Source: Piscicola geometra
Lineage: Eukaryota; Annelida; Clitellata; Hirudinida; Piscicolidae
Assembly (NCBI GenBank): GCA_943735955.1
Contig: OX030962.1
Span: forward strand, 3,507,239 to 3,571,238
DNA length: 64,000 bases
Direction of reading: 5' to 3'
A program made the translations under genes and the position numbers. The notes beneath the pieces are model-generated. The model was given only the letters and a program-made list of their open reading frames with translations. It was not told the origin of the DNA and did not search any database. This document shows, piece by piece, positions 41,066-53,618 of this stretch (within the stretch, counting starts at the first letter, position 1; every line of letters starts with the position of its first letter).

Positions 41066-41112
41066 GTACATAAGCCGGAAAGCACTACTTGTAGTCTCGA
41101 AAGAGACTACAA
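41066..41112 (+). other. CCGGAA box + GAAA hairpin, copy M1
   Basis: cataagccggaaag at 41069-41082, then a perfect 8-bp stem (gtagtctc 41091-41098, gagactac 41103-41110) closed by a GAAA tetraloop, then acaacacaaat and telomeric repeats from 41123. By comparison with M3 it should be the 3' end of an upstream, truncated Penelope-like unit. Confidence 0.75.
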
Positions 41113-41122
41113 CAACACAAAT

Positions 41123-41386
41123 CTAACCCTAACCCTAACCCTAACCCTAACCCTAACCCTAGCCCTAGCCCTAACCCTAACCCTAACCCTAACCCTAACC
41201 CTAAAATCCCTAACCCTAACCCTAACCCTAACCCTAACCCTAGCCCTAACCCTAACCCTAACCCTAACCCTAACCCTAACCCTAACCCTAACCCTAACCC
41301 TAACCCTAACCCTAAAATCCCTAACCCTAACCCTAACCCTAACCCTAACCCTAACCCTAACCCTAACCCTAACCCTAACCCTAACC
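41123..41386 (+). repeat. telomeric repeat tract (CCCTAA)n
   Basis: About 44 units, mostly ccctaa, with a few ccctag units. Two identical aaaatccctaacc joints (about 41202 and 41312) suggest that part of the tract was duplicated or that several short tracts were joined. The orientation is C-rich on the sense strand of the Penelope-like units. Confidence 0.97.
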
Positions 41387-41562
41387 ACTACAATGACGCG
41401 CGAACACAAACAAAGGATAATTACATATGCATCCACACATGCATCTACACGCATACATCTACACGGATGCTACTACAAATTTACATTATACTAAACATGA
41501 ACCTTGAAACAAAGGAATACCTCATATACATATGCGTCCACATACATATAAAGGGTTGTAAC

Positions 41563-41639
41563 GAACTCAATAAGTTAAATAAAACCTTCCTGATGAAGCG
41601 AATAAGCGAAACATGTCGAAGGATCTAACAGTTGAGTTC
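41563..41639 (+). ncRNA. hammerhead ribozyme 1 (type I, minimal stem III)
   Basis: Catalytic core CTGATGA (41590-41596) and GAAAC (41608-41612). Stem I: ccttc (41585-41589) with gaagg (41618-41622), extended by gtta/taac and gaactcaa (41563-41570) with ttgagttc (41632-41639). Cleavage is expected after GTC (41615-41617). Stem II is short (gc gaataa gc). Stem III is only the palindrome CATG (41612-41615), so pairing between two copies would stabilise the active form, as known for ribozymes of Penelope-like elements. Located in the 5' leader of PLE unit 1. Confidence 0.9.
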
Positions 41640-41679
41640 AAAATAATAATTTAAATCTTAAATTTAAATTACTTTTAAT

Positions 41680-41820
41680 CTCTCACATCGAGAATTAAAA
41701 GAATCATCCTAACTGTGTTCTAATACGAACAGTAAAGAATGATCTATTACTCACATCGAGAATTAAAAAACACCCTAACTGGATTCCTAACACGACCAGT
41801 AGAGAGTGGTTAAGAACAAA
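41680..41820 (+). repeat. ~70-bp direct repeats in PLE leader
   Basis: Two units containing tcacatcgagaattaaaa, then cctaact, then acgaacagtaaagaatg or acgaccagtagagagtg. Related units form a longer array before unit 2 (52536-53060). Confidence 0.8.
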
Positions 41821-41854
41821 AAGGTAAGTGGTTGACACCTAGATCACTTCCCAA

Positions 41855-41895
41855 GCCATAAGCCGGAACGCTTTTTTGTGACTAACCATCACATT
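41855..41895 (+). other. CCGGAA box + hairpin, copy M2
   Basis: gccataagccggaacg (41855-41870), then a 5-bp stem tgtga/tcaca (41877-41881, 41889-41893), then telomeric units from 41904. It sits between hammerhead 1 and the first open frame of PLE unit 1. Confidence 0.7.
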
Positions 41896-41903
41896 CTACC
41901 ATA

Positions 41904-41988
41904 CCTAACCCTAACCCTAACCCTAACCCTAAACTCTAACCCTAACCCTAACCCTAACCCTAACCCTAAACCCTAACCCTAACCCTAA
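41904..41988 (+). repeat. telomeric repeats inside PLE unit 1
   Basis: About 14 ccctaa-type units with two small irregularities (aaactctaac, aaacccta). In the frame ctaacc they read Leu-Thr and run without a stop into the following open frame. Confidence 0.95.
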
Positions 41989-51203: not shown

Positions 51204-52378
51204 ACACACTACCAAAAATCCACAAAGAGAAATCTAAGTGGTTTGAAGGAAGGGTCCCCCCAGGACGTCCTATAATCTCAAATACAAGTTCTGAAACCAC
51301 AAACATAACCAAGTACATCAACCACTATCTAGTACCACTAATGTACACCCACCCTAGCTACCTAAAGGATAGCTTCGAACTTATCAAAATTATCAAAGAA
51401 CTAAATACAAAAATAAGAGAGGAAAACATTGACACGAACAACCTCATAATGGCGACAGCCGACATCACCTCACTATACACAAACATGATAAATAACAAAA
51501 TAGTAGCAAAAACGAAACTAATTTTTAAAAAATTCCCAGACATTGGAAGACCTAACAAATTGATAATAGACCTACTAAAAGTCACATTAAACTATAATTT
51601 CTTTCAATACAACGGGAAACTATACAAACAAACAAGTGGCCTAGCAATGGGCGTAAGTATGGCACCAGCCCTAGCCAACATATATCTCCACGATCTAGAT
51701 AACATCATCTTAAAATACAAACCAATACTATACAAACGATACATAGATGATATTATAATAATATGCGACAGCACAATCATCAATGAAACAATAAACAACA
51801 CCACAAACAGAATAAAAGAAATCAAACTAGAATATGTAACAAACAATAAAACAATCACATTTTTAGACATAAACCTAGAGTTTATAGAAAACCAAATTAT
51901 TACAAAAACACACATAAAGGATACAAATAACCTAGCCTGGTTACACGCCGACTCTAATCATCCCAAACACATAATAACCAACTTACATAAGAGCGGCCTA
52001 ATAAGATTCTGCAGACAATGCACCCTAAAAAAAGACTATAACATACTAAGCAGAAGATTTATAAAAGCCCTCACACTAAGAGGTCACAACTATACAAAAA
52101 TGAAAATTAACGCCAAAGAAATTTGGCGAAATAAAGAAAAATACGAAGTGGAAAGAAACACCCCCAAACCCCCAAATAAAGACGAAGGGAAAGAAAAACA
52201 AAAAATAAAAGGAAACGAAAAACCGAAAGAAAAAGTGCCAATAATAATCGAATACACAAAAAATAATGAAGAACTCCTCAAAGACATTACAAAATCAATA
52301 AAAGAAATGGAGGACCTAATCATAATCCCAATAAAAGCATACAAAGTAGGGAAATCCCTAATAAGACAATTAATGTGA
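51204..52378 (+). CDS. PLE reverse transcriptase, C-terminal part (unit 1)
   Basis: Continues the frame of 42464-43229. It reads YTLPKIHKEKSKW, VPPGRPIISN, ATADITSLYTNM (motif A), TSGLAMGVSMAPALANIYL (motif B), YKRYIDDIIII (catalytic YxDD near 51741-51760), TFLDINLEF and WLHADSNHPKH. These are PLE hallmarks, shared in part with telomerase reverse transcriptase. After the thumb region the protein ends with a K/E-rich tail and a TGA stop at 52378. There is no GIY-YIG endonuclease motif downstream, and none is seen upstream in the frame. Endonuclease-lacking PLEs (Athena, Coprina groups) are known to attach to telomeres. Confidence 0.9.
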
Positions 52379-52497
52379 CAAAACAACAAATGAAACCACT
52401 AACCATAAAAGGATTATATTGAGAATGTTACCGGGCAGAACCAAACCATAAACCGGAAAGATTCTGGGAATCAGGAAACTGAATCTCACACAACAAC
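52379..52497 (+). other. PLE unit 1 3' UTR with CCGGAA box + hairpin M3
   Basis: A 119-base untranslated end. ccataaaccggaaag is at 52446-52460. It is followed by gaatcag-GAAA-ctgaatc (52468-52485; 7 pairs with one mismatch, GAAA tetraloop), then acacaacaac and telomeric units. An alternative stem gattc/gaatc overlaps it. This copy ties the motif to the 3' end of an RT-coding unit. Confidence 0.75.
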
Positions 52498-52537
52498 CTA
52501 ACCCTAACCCTAACCTTAACCCTAACCTTAATCCTAG
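52497..52537 (+). repeat. telomeric repeats after PLE unit 1
   Basis: About six ccctaa-type units, some as ccttaa, joining directly to the leader repeats of unit 2. Confidence 0.93.
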
Positions 52538-53060
52538 CACGACCAGTGTAGAATGATCTCCAAACTCTAACTTTAAAAATTAACTTTAAATAAAGACACC
52601 TAACCTGAGACCCTAACACGGCCAGTAAAGAGTGATCTTTTAACTTTAACTCTTAAACTTAACTTTAAACAAAGACACCTTACCTGTGACCCTAACACGG
52701 CCAGTAAAGAATGATCTTTTAATTATAATTTTAAATGAAGACACCTTACCTGTGACCCTAACACGGCCAGTAAAGAATGATCTTTTAATTATAATTTTAA
52801 ATGAAGACACCTTACCTGTGACCCTAACACGGCCAGTAGAGAGTGATCTGTTAACTTTAACTTTTAAAATTAACTTTAAATAAAGACACCTTACCTGTGA
52901 CCCTAACATGGCCAGTAGAGAGTGATCTGTTAACTTTAACTTTTAAAATTAACTGTAAACAAAGACACTTTACCTGTGACCCTAACACGGCCAGTAGAGA
53001 GTGATCTTTTAACTCTAACTCTTAAAATTAACTTTAAACAAAGACACCTTAACTCTAACT
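52536..53060 (+). repeat. ~70-bp tandem repeats, leader of PLE unit 2
   Basis: Seven units carrying gaccctaacacggccagtaa or ..gtagagagtgatct and aaagacaccttacctgtgac. Each keeps one or two ccctaa words. Units vary in the inner ttaactttaac stretch. Homologous to the shorter array at 41680-41820. Confidence 0.92.
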
Positions 53061-53200
53061 CTGACTCAGACTCTACAATACTAAGAGATCCTGAAGTCTC
53101 CGAATCAACCTTGCTCTACAACACAAAGTCTCCGAAGCATCTTTGCTCTACAACACAGAGATATCCTGAAGTCTCAGAATCAACTTTGTACTACTTTAAT
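53061..53200 (+). repeat. short direct repeats (tctccgaatcaac/tgctctacaaca)
   Basis: Three imperfect copies of a 40-50 base unit containing gatcctgaagtctcc and ttgctctacaacaca, between the 70-bp array and hammerhead 2. Confidence 0.75.
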
Positions 53201-53335
53201 TGATTCATATTGACTTATCTAACATTATCACTATCGATGTGTACTCACCTGGTTTTCTTGACGTTGACACATTAACATAATCGCGCTCTTTCATTAACAT
53301 ACGCACTTGCCAGCCTATATAAGGCGACTCATCAT

Positions 53336-53395
53336 GTGTAGGATAACCCTGATGAAGCTTACCCATAAGCGAAACTAGTTGGTTCAATCCTACAC
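53336..53395 (+). ncRNA. hammerhead ribozyme 2 (type I, minimal stem III)
   Basis: Core CTGATGA (53349-53355) and GAAAC (53371-53375). Stem II: gctta (53357-53361) with taagc (53366-53370), loop ccca. Stem I: aacc (53345-53348) with ggtt (53381-53384), then gtgtaggat (53336-53344) with atcctacac (53387-53395), 9 perfect pairs. Stem III is the palindrome CTAG (53375-53378). Cleavage is expected after GTT (53378-53380). The stem sequences differ from ribozyme 1 while the fold is kept, which supports function. Confidence 0.93.
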
Positions 53396-53550
53396 GATGT
53401 TATTACAATAAAACATTACAAAAAAACCAGTTGTTTTATTGTCTTCAAAAATATGGCGAGTTATAATAATTAAATCAACAGCGAACAACAATAAAGTCAA
53501 CACAAAGAAGCGTGGAGATCTCCTCGAGTTGCTGATGCCTCCGTCTTCAC

Positions 53551-53580
53551 GAGCCGGAACCCACTCATGTCTTCGGACAT
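53551..53580 (+). other. CCGGAA box + TTCG hairpin, copy M4
   Basis: gagccggaaccc (53551-53562), then atgtc-TTCG-gacat (53567-53580), a 5-bp stem with the very stable UUCG tetraloop, then acaccctca and telomeric units. Confidence 0.75.
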
Positions 53581-53588
53581 ACACCCTC

Positions 53589-53618
53589 AAACCCTAACCC
53601 TAACCTAACCCTAACCTT
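53589..53618 (+). repeat. short telomeric tract in PLE unit 2
   Basis: About five ccctaa units, one shortened to cctaa, directly before ORF1 of unit 2. Confidence 0.93.

What the first reader, a model, noticed from the sequence alone, without database searches (positions are those of the whole stretch)
41066..53618. Recurrent CCGGAA box + stem-loop + (CCCTAA)n module
Seen at four places (41066, 41855, 52446, 53551): a (c)ata-a(g/a)CCGGAA-type box, 6-20 bases later a hairpin, 10-20 bases later telomeric repeats. The stems are unrelated in sequence yet all pair (gtagtctc/gagactac, tgtga/tcaca, gaatcag/ctgaatc, atgtc/gacat); three have GAAA or TTCG tetraloops. One copy is the RT 3' UTR, two lie between a hammerhead and ORF1. 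Sequence change with kept pairing suggests selection on RNA structure. It could be the RT-binding or 3'-end-positioning signal that presents the CCCTAA template, playing a part similar to a telomerase RNA template boundary. I know no description of it.
Basis: partly seen in the sequence, partly recalled or inferred. Interest (0 to 1): 0.9.

Follow-up and report, generated by a model that had tools for sequence, protein, structure and literature searches.

The report
Telomerase-RNA-like template inside retrotransposon RNA
Retrotransposons that attach to telomeric repeats in this eukaryotic genome carry in their RNA a small folded domain that holds a ready-made copy of the telomere repeat, much as telomerase RNA does, and this is the point at which their copies join the telomeric DNA.

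Summary
In the window's own unnamed 171-Mb genome, box + 20-50 nt + telomeric repeats matches 67 times (nested matches included) against 0 for the reversed pattern. Intact copies show the rest: P1 strand - RRR - CCGGAA - hairpin P2 - 7..11 nt - telomeric template (9-12 nt, mostly AACCCUAACC) - GGAAGG - YR - P1 strand (14 modules). The template is encoded inside the transcript. P1 and P2 covary (three of five measures: 0 of 500 shuffles as high). In 9 families with both kinds of copy, 26 of 26 telomere-joined copies that I compared leave the intact copy at the template. 30 of 35 reverse transcriptase (RT) matches reaching the C-terminus have the box 46-94 nt downstream. Hammerhead units without RT share the module. 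Best reading: an RT-recognition domain of endonuclease-deficient Penelope-like elements that presents an internal telomeric template to the chromosome's G-overhang. Internal priming loses half the signal per lap; near-identical head-to-tail arrays ending at the module fit copying of multimeric or circular RNA. Binding and priming are inferred. The four window copies are telomere-joined ends.

The parts
41069..41112 (+). copy c1: P1 5' remnant CAT (41069-41071), box CCGGAA (41075-41080), hairpin TTGTAGTCTC(GAAA)GAGACTACAA (41089-41112)
   Evidence: intact relatives C6:2389829(-) and C6:2398259(-)
41123..41386 (+). (CCCTAA)n to which c1 is joined
41585..41622 (+). minimal type-I hammerhead-like motif (CCTTC CTGATGA..GAAAC ATGTC GAAGG)
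   Evidence: same motif in the 700-bp tandem units; not reported by Rfam
41855..41893 (+). copy c2: P1 5' remnant GCCAT (41855-41859), box (41863-41868), hairpin TGTGA(CTAACCA)TCACA (41877-41893); 3' end of a hammerhead unit
41904..41988 (+). (CCCTAA)n to which c2 is joined
41970..42452 (+). ORF1-like frame of unit A, no start codon near its beginning (looks 5'-truncated)
42428..43237 (+). RT-A, N-terminal part; interrupted by an insert about 43236-51187
51188..52378 (+). RT-A, C-terminal part; RVT_1, no endonuclease domain reported after it
   Evidence: PF00078, E 4.7e-11
52446..52488 (+). copy c3 in the RT-A 3' UTR: P1 5' remnant CCAT (52446-52449), box (52453-52458), hairpin with one A.A mismatch (52465-52488)
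   Evidence: intact relatives C19:147926, C55:415066
52497..52536 (+). (CCCTAA)n to which c3 is joined
52521..53051 (+). 79-bp tandem repeats at the start of the next hammerhead unit
53336..53395 (+). hammerhead-like motif, stem I GTGTAGGAT/ATCCTACAC
53546..53580 (+). copy c4: P1 5' remnant TTCAC (53546-53550), box (53554-53559), hairpin ATGTC(TTCG)GACAT (53567-53580); 3' end of a hammerhead unit
   Evidence: covariance model R1 finds it (E 9e-5) and no other window copy
53592..53617 (+). (CCCTAA)n to which c4 is joined
53615..56069 (+). ORF1-B, looks 5'-truncated at the repeats, with an insert at about 54394-55050
56317..59353 (+). RT-B with an insert at about 57320-58200; runs into (CCCTAA)n at 59306 without its own module in this copy
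   Evidence: the relative at C15 (RT-B 96-100%) has the module (L052)

Best explanation
The module is the core of a cis-acting RNA domain of endonuclease-deficient Penelope-like elements. In the transcript a helix P1 (3-7 bp) closes a loop holding box CCGGAA, hairpin P2, a 7-11 nt linker, a 9-12 nt telomeric template (1.5-2 repeats, mostly AACCCUAACC) and box GGAAGG. The element's RT recognises the domain (inferred). The 3' G-overhang of a telomere anneals to the template and primes cDNA synthesis, which runs upstream through P2, the box and the unit (inferred from where copies join). The joined copy therefore starts at the template, runs on as host (CCCTAA)n and has lost GGAAGG and the 3' strand of P1. 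The 5' end is truncated and capped with telomeric repeats, presumably by the host telomerase. Hammerhead units of 700, 1172 and 2311 bp without RT use the same domain and are presumably mobilised in trans. Because priming is internal, a complete domain returns only if the RT copies more than one unit length, i.e. a tandem transcript or a hammerhead-circularised RNA; this explains near-identical head-to-tail arrays ending at the module. Shown: domain, covariation, association, junctions, arrays. Inferred: RT binding, overhang priming, circular template.
For: Genome-wide patterns: 41+26 matches vs 0+0 reversed control; CCGGAA..CCCTAACC 65+30 vs 5+4; with GGAAGG 87+75 vs 3+1 (88 of the 100 listed are two arrays of 700-bp units). 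P2: 12 families, sum of energies -78.8 vs shuffles -37.5 (sd 5.8), 0 of 2000; 18 hairpins of 5 bp with 4-nt loop: 95.6% of cells paired vs 76.6 shuffled, 25 cells changed on both sides vs 7.5, covariation score 0.637 vs 0.242, each 0 of 500. P1: 14 intact modules, the three inner pairs standard in 42 of 42 cells with 9 two-sided and no one-sided changes; all nine pairs 84.9% vs 69.9 shuffled, 23 two-sided cells vs 9.6, each 0 of 500; partners slid by 1-3 columns 20-48%. Template encoded: an intact 5074-bp unit reads CACAAACCCTAACC|GCTGGAAGGTGG; 26 of 26 compared joined copies of 9 families leave at the template. RT ends: 30 of 35. C2 left end: 3.1 kb of (CCCTAA)n - 5'-truncated unit - four full units, neighbours differing by 1, 0 and 1 nt over 5074 - module - 42 bp of repeats. 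No EN domain: 699-aa ORF has RVT_1 only. Host TERT match.
Against: No RNA, binding or priming data. One genome only: scans of IMG/VR and of GTDB genomes gave only hits that I judge chance. Two of the five covariation measures do not exceed the shuffles: number of pairs with a two-sided change (220 of 500 for P2, 71 of 500 for P1) and further pair types (349 and 387 of 500). The 14 intact modules include near relatives (about ten families), the shuffles ignore relatedness, and the P1 register was chosen on the same sequences. P1 is only 3 bp in several families; the pair next to CC/GG fails in 3 of 14. One RT-linked copy (C10:8559995) lacks the P2 3' arm, one (C6:5834094) has a degraded P2, five listed loci of family F3c have an A.C mismatch in P2. 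Taken singly, 5 of 12 families are not significant. A related RT group at the same telomeres lacks the module (5 of 35). Near-identical arrays could also come from unequal exchange. Two arrays lie in opposite orientation near one contig end (C6), which simple end addition does not predict.
Confidence: 0.8

Rival explanations
1. The CCCTAA stretch is only target DNA (telomere) left beside elements that end at a hairpin; the element encodes no template.
For: Long (CCCTAA)n after joined copies are plainly host-type telomere (up to several kb); this was my own reading from the window alone.
Against: Intact internal copies encode AACCCTAACC or a like stretch followed by unique sequence and GGAAGG in 9 families.
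Confidence: 0.05
2. DNA-level signal: CCGGAA is an ETS-type transcription-factor core (recalled, from no call), i.e. a promoter element of the terminal repeats, and the hairpins are incidental.
For: CCGGAA resembles the ETS core (recalled); PLE terminal repeats are expected to hold promoters (PMC11167929, passage).
Against: Spacing within a few nt, two covarying helices and GNRA/UNCG loops in 7 of 12 families (by reading) fit RNA; the junction falls 36-57 nt downstream of the box start in the families compared.
Confidence: 0.05
3. The tandem arrays arise by unequal recombination or replication slippage after a single insertion; circular or multimeric RNA templates are not involved.
For: Satellite-like arrays of tens of units (48 listed 700-bp units at C6:10123069-10155966) are typical of recombination.
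Against: A single-lap insertion lacks GGAAGG and P1', so recombination cannot create them from it; arrays on C2, C5 and C20 end at the module beside telomeric repeats.
Confidence: 0.3
4. The domain is an RNA-processing or export signal of the transcripts, retained because it lies beside the RT 3' end.
For: It is in the 3' UTR of RT units; no binding data exist.
Against: It is also in hammerhead units without RT, 204-273 nt after the hammerhead, and its template is the join point.
Confidence: 0.08

Closest known systems
Terminons / Athena, endonuclease-deficient PLEs of bdelloid rotifers (Arkhipova et al. 2017; seen only through passages of PMC6431247 and PMC12477314, the paper itself not held)
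   Same: PLE RT without EN, units at telomeres in head-to-tail chains, 5' truncation by telomeric repeats, hammerheads, C-rich repeats complementary to the G-overhang
   [quoted passage not shown] here it is an internal 9-12 nt template between two conserved boxes in a P1/P2 fold, not adjacent to the hammerhead
Poseidon of Anolis (PAc), internal initiation of reverse transcription (PMC11167929, passages read)
   Same: A PLE RT starts inside its RNA, in an AC-rich stem-loop near the pLTR-ORF junction; tandem units; hammerhead
   Different: PAc has an endonuclease, cleaves AT-rich DNA, and its start site is not homologous to the target; here the start site is telomeric
Telomerase RNA
   Same: Short internal template of 1.5 or more repeats with a stem 5' of it (features as given in PMC12632851, passages)
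   Different: Not a separate RNA; the RT copies through the upstream hairpin; no Rfam match; pseudoknot and other TR parts not looked for
DRT10 ncRNA (PMC12632851, passages read)
   [quoted passage not shown] AACC-CU-AACC here
   Different: Bacterial, protein-primed, makes free tandem repeats
Shared LINE/SINE 3' tails with a stem-loop (PMC4176376, PMC5135761: search listing and start of abstract)
   Same: An autonomous and a non-autonomous element share a 3' RNA stem-loop recognised by the RT
   Different: LINE tails are 3' terminal; here the signal is internal and carries the target's repeat
Metazoan non-LTR retrozymes (PMC7229834, PMC7761336, passages read)
   Same: Tandem units with type I hammerheads and no RT; the review names PLEs/Terminons as likely helpers
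   Different: Units here are 700-2311 bp, carry the telomeric template domain and end at telomeric repeats

Membership tests
Endonuclease-deficient telomere-associated PLE | PLE-type RT | tested here: met
   RVT_1; homologous to RTs of which some carry GIY-YIG, PF01541
Endonuclease-deficient telomere-associated PLE | no GIY-YIG endonuclease | tested here: met
   RT-A C-terminal part and the 699-aa intact ORF: RVT_1 only
Endonuclease-deficient telomere-associated PLE | attached to telomeric repeats, 3' end inward, 5' truncation by repeats | tested here: met
   C2 and C5 left ends and parts of small repeat-rich contigs; many copies are internal, and C6 10.08-10.18 Mb has an unexpected orientation
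Terminon | C-rich repeats immediately downstream of a hammerhead | tested here: not met
   hammerhead core 204-273 nt upstream of the box in hammerhead units, 913 nt downstream of it in the 5074-bp RT unit
Terminon | giant units with extra ORFs (GDSL, exonuclease, Rep) | not tested
   units seen are 0.7-5.8 kb; only ORF1 and RT noted
Telomerase RNA | template of more than one telomere repeat | tested here: met
   9-12 nt in 14 intact modules
Telomerase RNA | helix 5' of the template (boundary element) | tested here: inconclusive
   P2 is placed 7-11 nt before it, but the RT must copy through it (inference)
Telomerase RNA | RNA separate from the RT mRNA | tested here: not met
   the box lies 46-94 nt after the RT alignment end in 30 of 35; transcripts not seen
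Telomerase RNA | match to a known TR family or pseudoknot | tested here: inconclusive
   no telomerase RNA match at E up to 1 in nine sources; pseudoknot not tested
Non-LTR retrozyme | tandem units with a type I hammerhead and no RT | tested here: met
   700-, 1172-, 2311-bp units; frames short or repetitive; no RT match in them
Non-LTR retrozyme | circular RNA in vivo | not testable with these tools
   no transcript data

The most novel reading that the evidence does not exclude
A mobile telomerase-like ribonucleoprotein: the element's own RT uses a telomerase-RNA-like domain (closed loop, stem, A-B-A' telomeric template) in its mRNA to prime on chromosome ends, may add telomeric repeats itself by template realignment, and then runs on, circling a hammerhead-made RNA circle several times, so that one event lays down a near-identical head-to-tail array. 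Such a domain would be a working intermediate between retrotransposon 3' signals and telomerase RNA.
Probability: 0.3. Interest if true: 0.96.

Novelty: new variant of a known kind. Interest (0 to 1): 0.88.

Why it matters
PLE RTs share ancestry with telomerase RT (PMC6431247, PMC4700185, passages), yet how they choose where to start copying is mostly unknown, and I met no description of a telomerase-RNA-like part in them in my library searches. A covarying, template-bearing RNA domain shared by RT-coding units and hammerhead units without RT makes RT binding, priming on telomeric overhangs and the helper role for retrozymes testable with short RNAs. It also suggests a reason for the pseudo-LTR tandem arrangement and hammerheads of PLEs: internal priming loses half the signal unless the template RNA is repeated or circular.

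Tried and rejected
Viral (20 stretches) and prokaryotic (2) hits of the pattern were read and judged chance. RT searches of IMG/VR found no relatives. The idea that the box is a broken hammerhead (CATAAGC-GAAAC vs CATAAGCCGGAAC) was dropped: no CUGAUGA at three of the four window copies, and the 'CAT' part is the P1 strand. A 4-nt upstream complement of the box failed in sister copies. My first reading that CCCTAA was only residual telomere was overturned. A free duplex search between the flanks gave only p = 0.03 overall; P1 became clear with a fixed register chosen on the same sequences, so the slid control is the safeguard. Covariance model R1 (9 of 14 intact modules, those whose P2 aligned) finds only c4 in the window, not c1-c3. 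MAFFT misaligned P2 in A4, A5 and A7, so P2 was counted on 14-mers (A6): only hairpins of 5 bp with a 4-nt loop, 18 of the 20 tried; two that shifted (L058, L078) were left out, as were the families with longer, bulged or mismatched stems (c2, c3, L041, L052). In one search one nested duplicate was dropped and one variant-box module added. The 26 joined copies were picked by hand from those with sequence; families without an intact copy could not be compared, and arrays and segmental duplicates make the copies not independent.
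Full report
1. What the window shows. Each has CCGGAA, a hairpin 6-8 nt later and telomeric repeats 8-11 nt after the hairpin. Hairpins exceed shuffles jointly; copy 4 alone does not (p = 0.13). Around them are pieces of Penelope-like elements: RT-A in two halves around a large insert, RT-B with an insert, ORF1-like frames, and two minimal type-I hammerhead-like motifs at 41590 and 53349. Rfam reports none of this.

2. The genome. The window is C8:3507239-3571238 of a 171-Mb assembly of 66 contigs. 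The pattern CCGGAA-N20..50-CTAACCCTAACCC has 41+26 matches (53 distinct box positions by my count of the table) against 0+0 for the reversed pattern. They include runs near contig starts (C2:30-56 kb, C5:3-6 kb) and contigs of 16-33 kb that, in the parts fetched, are telomeric repeats and units (C20, C35, C37, C38, C44, C52-C54), but also internal places such as this window and C6:2.13-2.44 Mb. The order c3 - c4 - RT-B-type module recurs at C15, C19 and C55, and in part at C17, so those junctions are not independent.

3. The missing half. In the array at C2:10001-30447 (unit 5074 bp: hammerhead - ORF1 - RT) the RT 3' UTR reads box - hairpin - CACAAACCCTAACC - GCTGGAAGGTGG - about 860 nt - next hammerhead. 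So the element encodes about 1.5 telomere repeats inside its transcript. Other intact copies show the same plan with other letters; in 14 of them the hairpin starts 5-9 nt after the box, the template 7-11 nt after the hairpin, and GGAAGG 3-8 nt after the template. In the 9 families for which I compared both kinds, 26 of 26 telomere-joined copies match the intact one up to the template and leave it there, within it or within 3 nt; one has a 1-nt insertion just before the template and two of family c1 are shifted in register. With GGAAGG included the genome holds 87+75 matches against 3+1 in the control; only the first 100 places were listed, 88 of them two arrays of 700-bp units.

4. Structure. 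P2: 33 distinct modules fall into 12 families at 70% identity; the sum of the 12 folding energies is -78.8 against -37.5 (sd 5.8) for shuffles, 0 of 2000 as low; 7 of 12 families have p below 0.05 on their own and 11 of 12 have the hairpin. On 18 aligned hairpins (5 bp, 4-nt loop only) 95.6% of cells pair (76.6 shuffled) and 25 cells change on both sides (7.5 shuffled), 0 of 500 each; the number of pairs with a two-sided change (220 of 500) and of further pair types (349 of 500) do not exceed the shuffles. Examples within homologous families: GCATC/GATGC and GCGTC/GACGC (L060); ACATCC/GGATGT (C2:57.4 kb) and ATATCC/GGATAT (C11). P1: three nucleotides before CCGGAA and two after GGAAGG begin two strands that pair in each of the 14 intact modules: GTAACCC/GGGTTAC, AGTCCC/GGGACT, GGCCAT/ATGGCT, CTTCAC/GTGAAG, TCAC/GTGA, ATAC/GTAT, TAC/GTA, CAC/GTG, CCAT/ATGG, CAT/ATG (ten kinds; the 14 include near relatives). 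The three inner pairs are standard in 42 of 42 cells with 9 two-sided and no one-sided changes; the full nine-pair set reaches 84.9% against 69.9 shuffled, 0 of 500, and 20-48% when slid; the two measures named above again do not exceed the shuffles (71 and 387 of 500; with 13 modules). The shuffles keep no relatedness, so the counts are not probabilities.

5. Association. Of 35 RT matches that reach residue 391 or more of the 395-aa query (best candidates only, several with stops), 30 have the box or a one- or two-letter variant (CTGGAA, CTGGAT) 46-94 nt downstream; array units and duplicates are counted singly. RTs of families F2 and F3 whose C-terminal match breaks off earlier are not in the 35, though their modules lie further on. 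The 5 without the box have 46-52% identity to RT-A; the three of them put in a tree form a group beside the module-bearing RTs (support 0.988; the six module-bearing RTs 1.000). Four of the 5 have CAATACGGCGCCAA in the 3' flank instead, as does a further copy at C1:306843; the fifth (C2:66119) runs into a short tandem repeat. A second kind of carrier has no RT: units of 700, 1172 and 2311 bp with a hammerhead core 204-273 nt before the box. Their longest frames are short or repetitive. For family c1 I found neither RT nor hammerhead upstream.

6. Arrays. At the C2 left end 3.1 kb of CCCTAA is followed by a unit cut off inside ORF1 and four full units; successive full units differ by 1, 0 and 1 nt over 5074; the last ends at the module and 42 bp of repeats, after which a further truncated unit follows (the comparison that runs into the truncated unit shows 992 mismatches, as expected). 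C5 begins with 1172-bp units without mismatch over the 1146 and 1172 bp compared, C20 with 2311-bp units with 1 and 0 mismatches (the third comparison runs past the joined end and shows 1458), and C6 has 48 listed 700-bp units before a joined end at 10160866; two such units were compared over 830 bp without mismatch. A joined end lacks GGAAGG and the 3' strand of P1, so a one-lap insertion cannot by itself restore a full domain. Copying a tandem transcript or an RNA circle would. Hammerheads make circles in retrozymes (PMC7229834, passages). This step is inference; recombination remains a rival for the larger arrays.

7. Mechanism and comparison. I take it that the RT binds the domain, the telomeric overhang anneals to AACCCUAACC and primes, and the host telomerase (a Telomerase_RBD match exists at C3:11028776) caps the 5' end. 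Terminons join telomeres through C-rich repeats next to a hammerhead (PMC6431247, passages); Poseidon starts reverse transcription inside its RNA in a stem-loop (PMC11167929, passages); DRT10 and telomerase use a template of more than one repeat downstream of a stem-loop (PMC12632851, passages). The present domain combines these. Searches of the held library for Penelope with telomere, hammerhead, stem-loop, telomerase RNA and terminon terms listed no paper that, by title and start of abstract, describes such a domain; the two key papers are not held, so I do not claim that it is unpublished.

8. Limits. One genome, no RNA data, short P1 in several families, some degraded copies (C10:8559995 without the 3' arm of P2; C6:5834094), an A.C mismatch in P2 of family F3c (five listed loci), and a search of the genome for further intact families that did not complete (last try).

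Noticed in passing
G000 C2:3293, 48702, 53581; C8:8966110; C1:306843 (L053, L057, L058, L091, L095): A related RT group at the same telomeres lacks the box and hairpin but shares CAATACGGCGCCAA before a pyrimidine-rich stretch and CCCTAA-like repeats; it may have its own signal.
   Followed up: partly
window 43236-51187: The insert that splits RT-A has similar short repeats in opposite orientation at both ends and contains what reads like a MULE transposase (44510-46115, minus) and a non-LTR RT (47796-50375); not tested against families.
   Followed up: no
window 31888-33735 and 33878-33909: hAT-like transposase frames (minus strand, by reading) and a short CCCTAA stretch upstream of them without the box.
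   Followed up: no
window 61119-61890: A piece of ORF1-B 98-99% identical to stretches of 53917-55349, without the 54394-55050 insert, so a recent duplicate.
   Followed up: partly
G000 C6:10080632-10107934 (-) and C6:10123069-10160866 (+): Two long arrays of the same 700-bp hammerhead unit in opposite orientation near one contig end; orientation does not fit simple end addition.
   Followed up: no
G000 C5:6880 (L059): A unit capped by telomeric repeats starts inside hammerhead stem I, upstream of the expected cleavage site, so that template seems not to have been cut there.
   Followed up: no
G000 C3:11028776-11029144: Telomerase_RBD match (105.8 bits): the genome has a TERT gene.
   Followed up: partly
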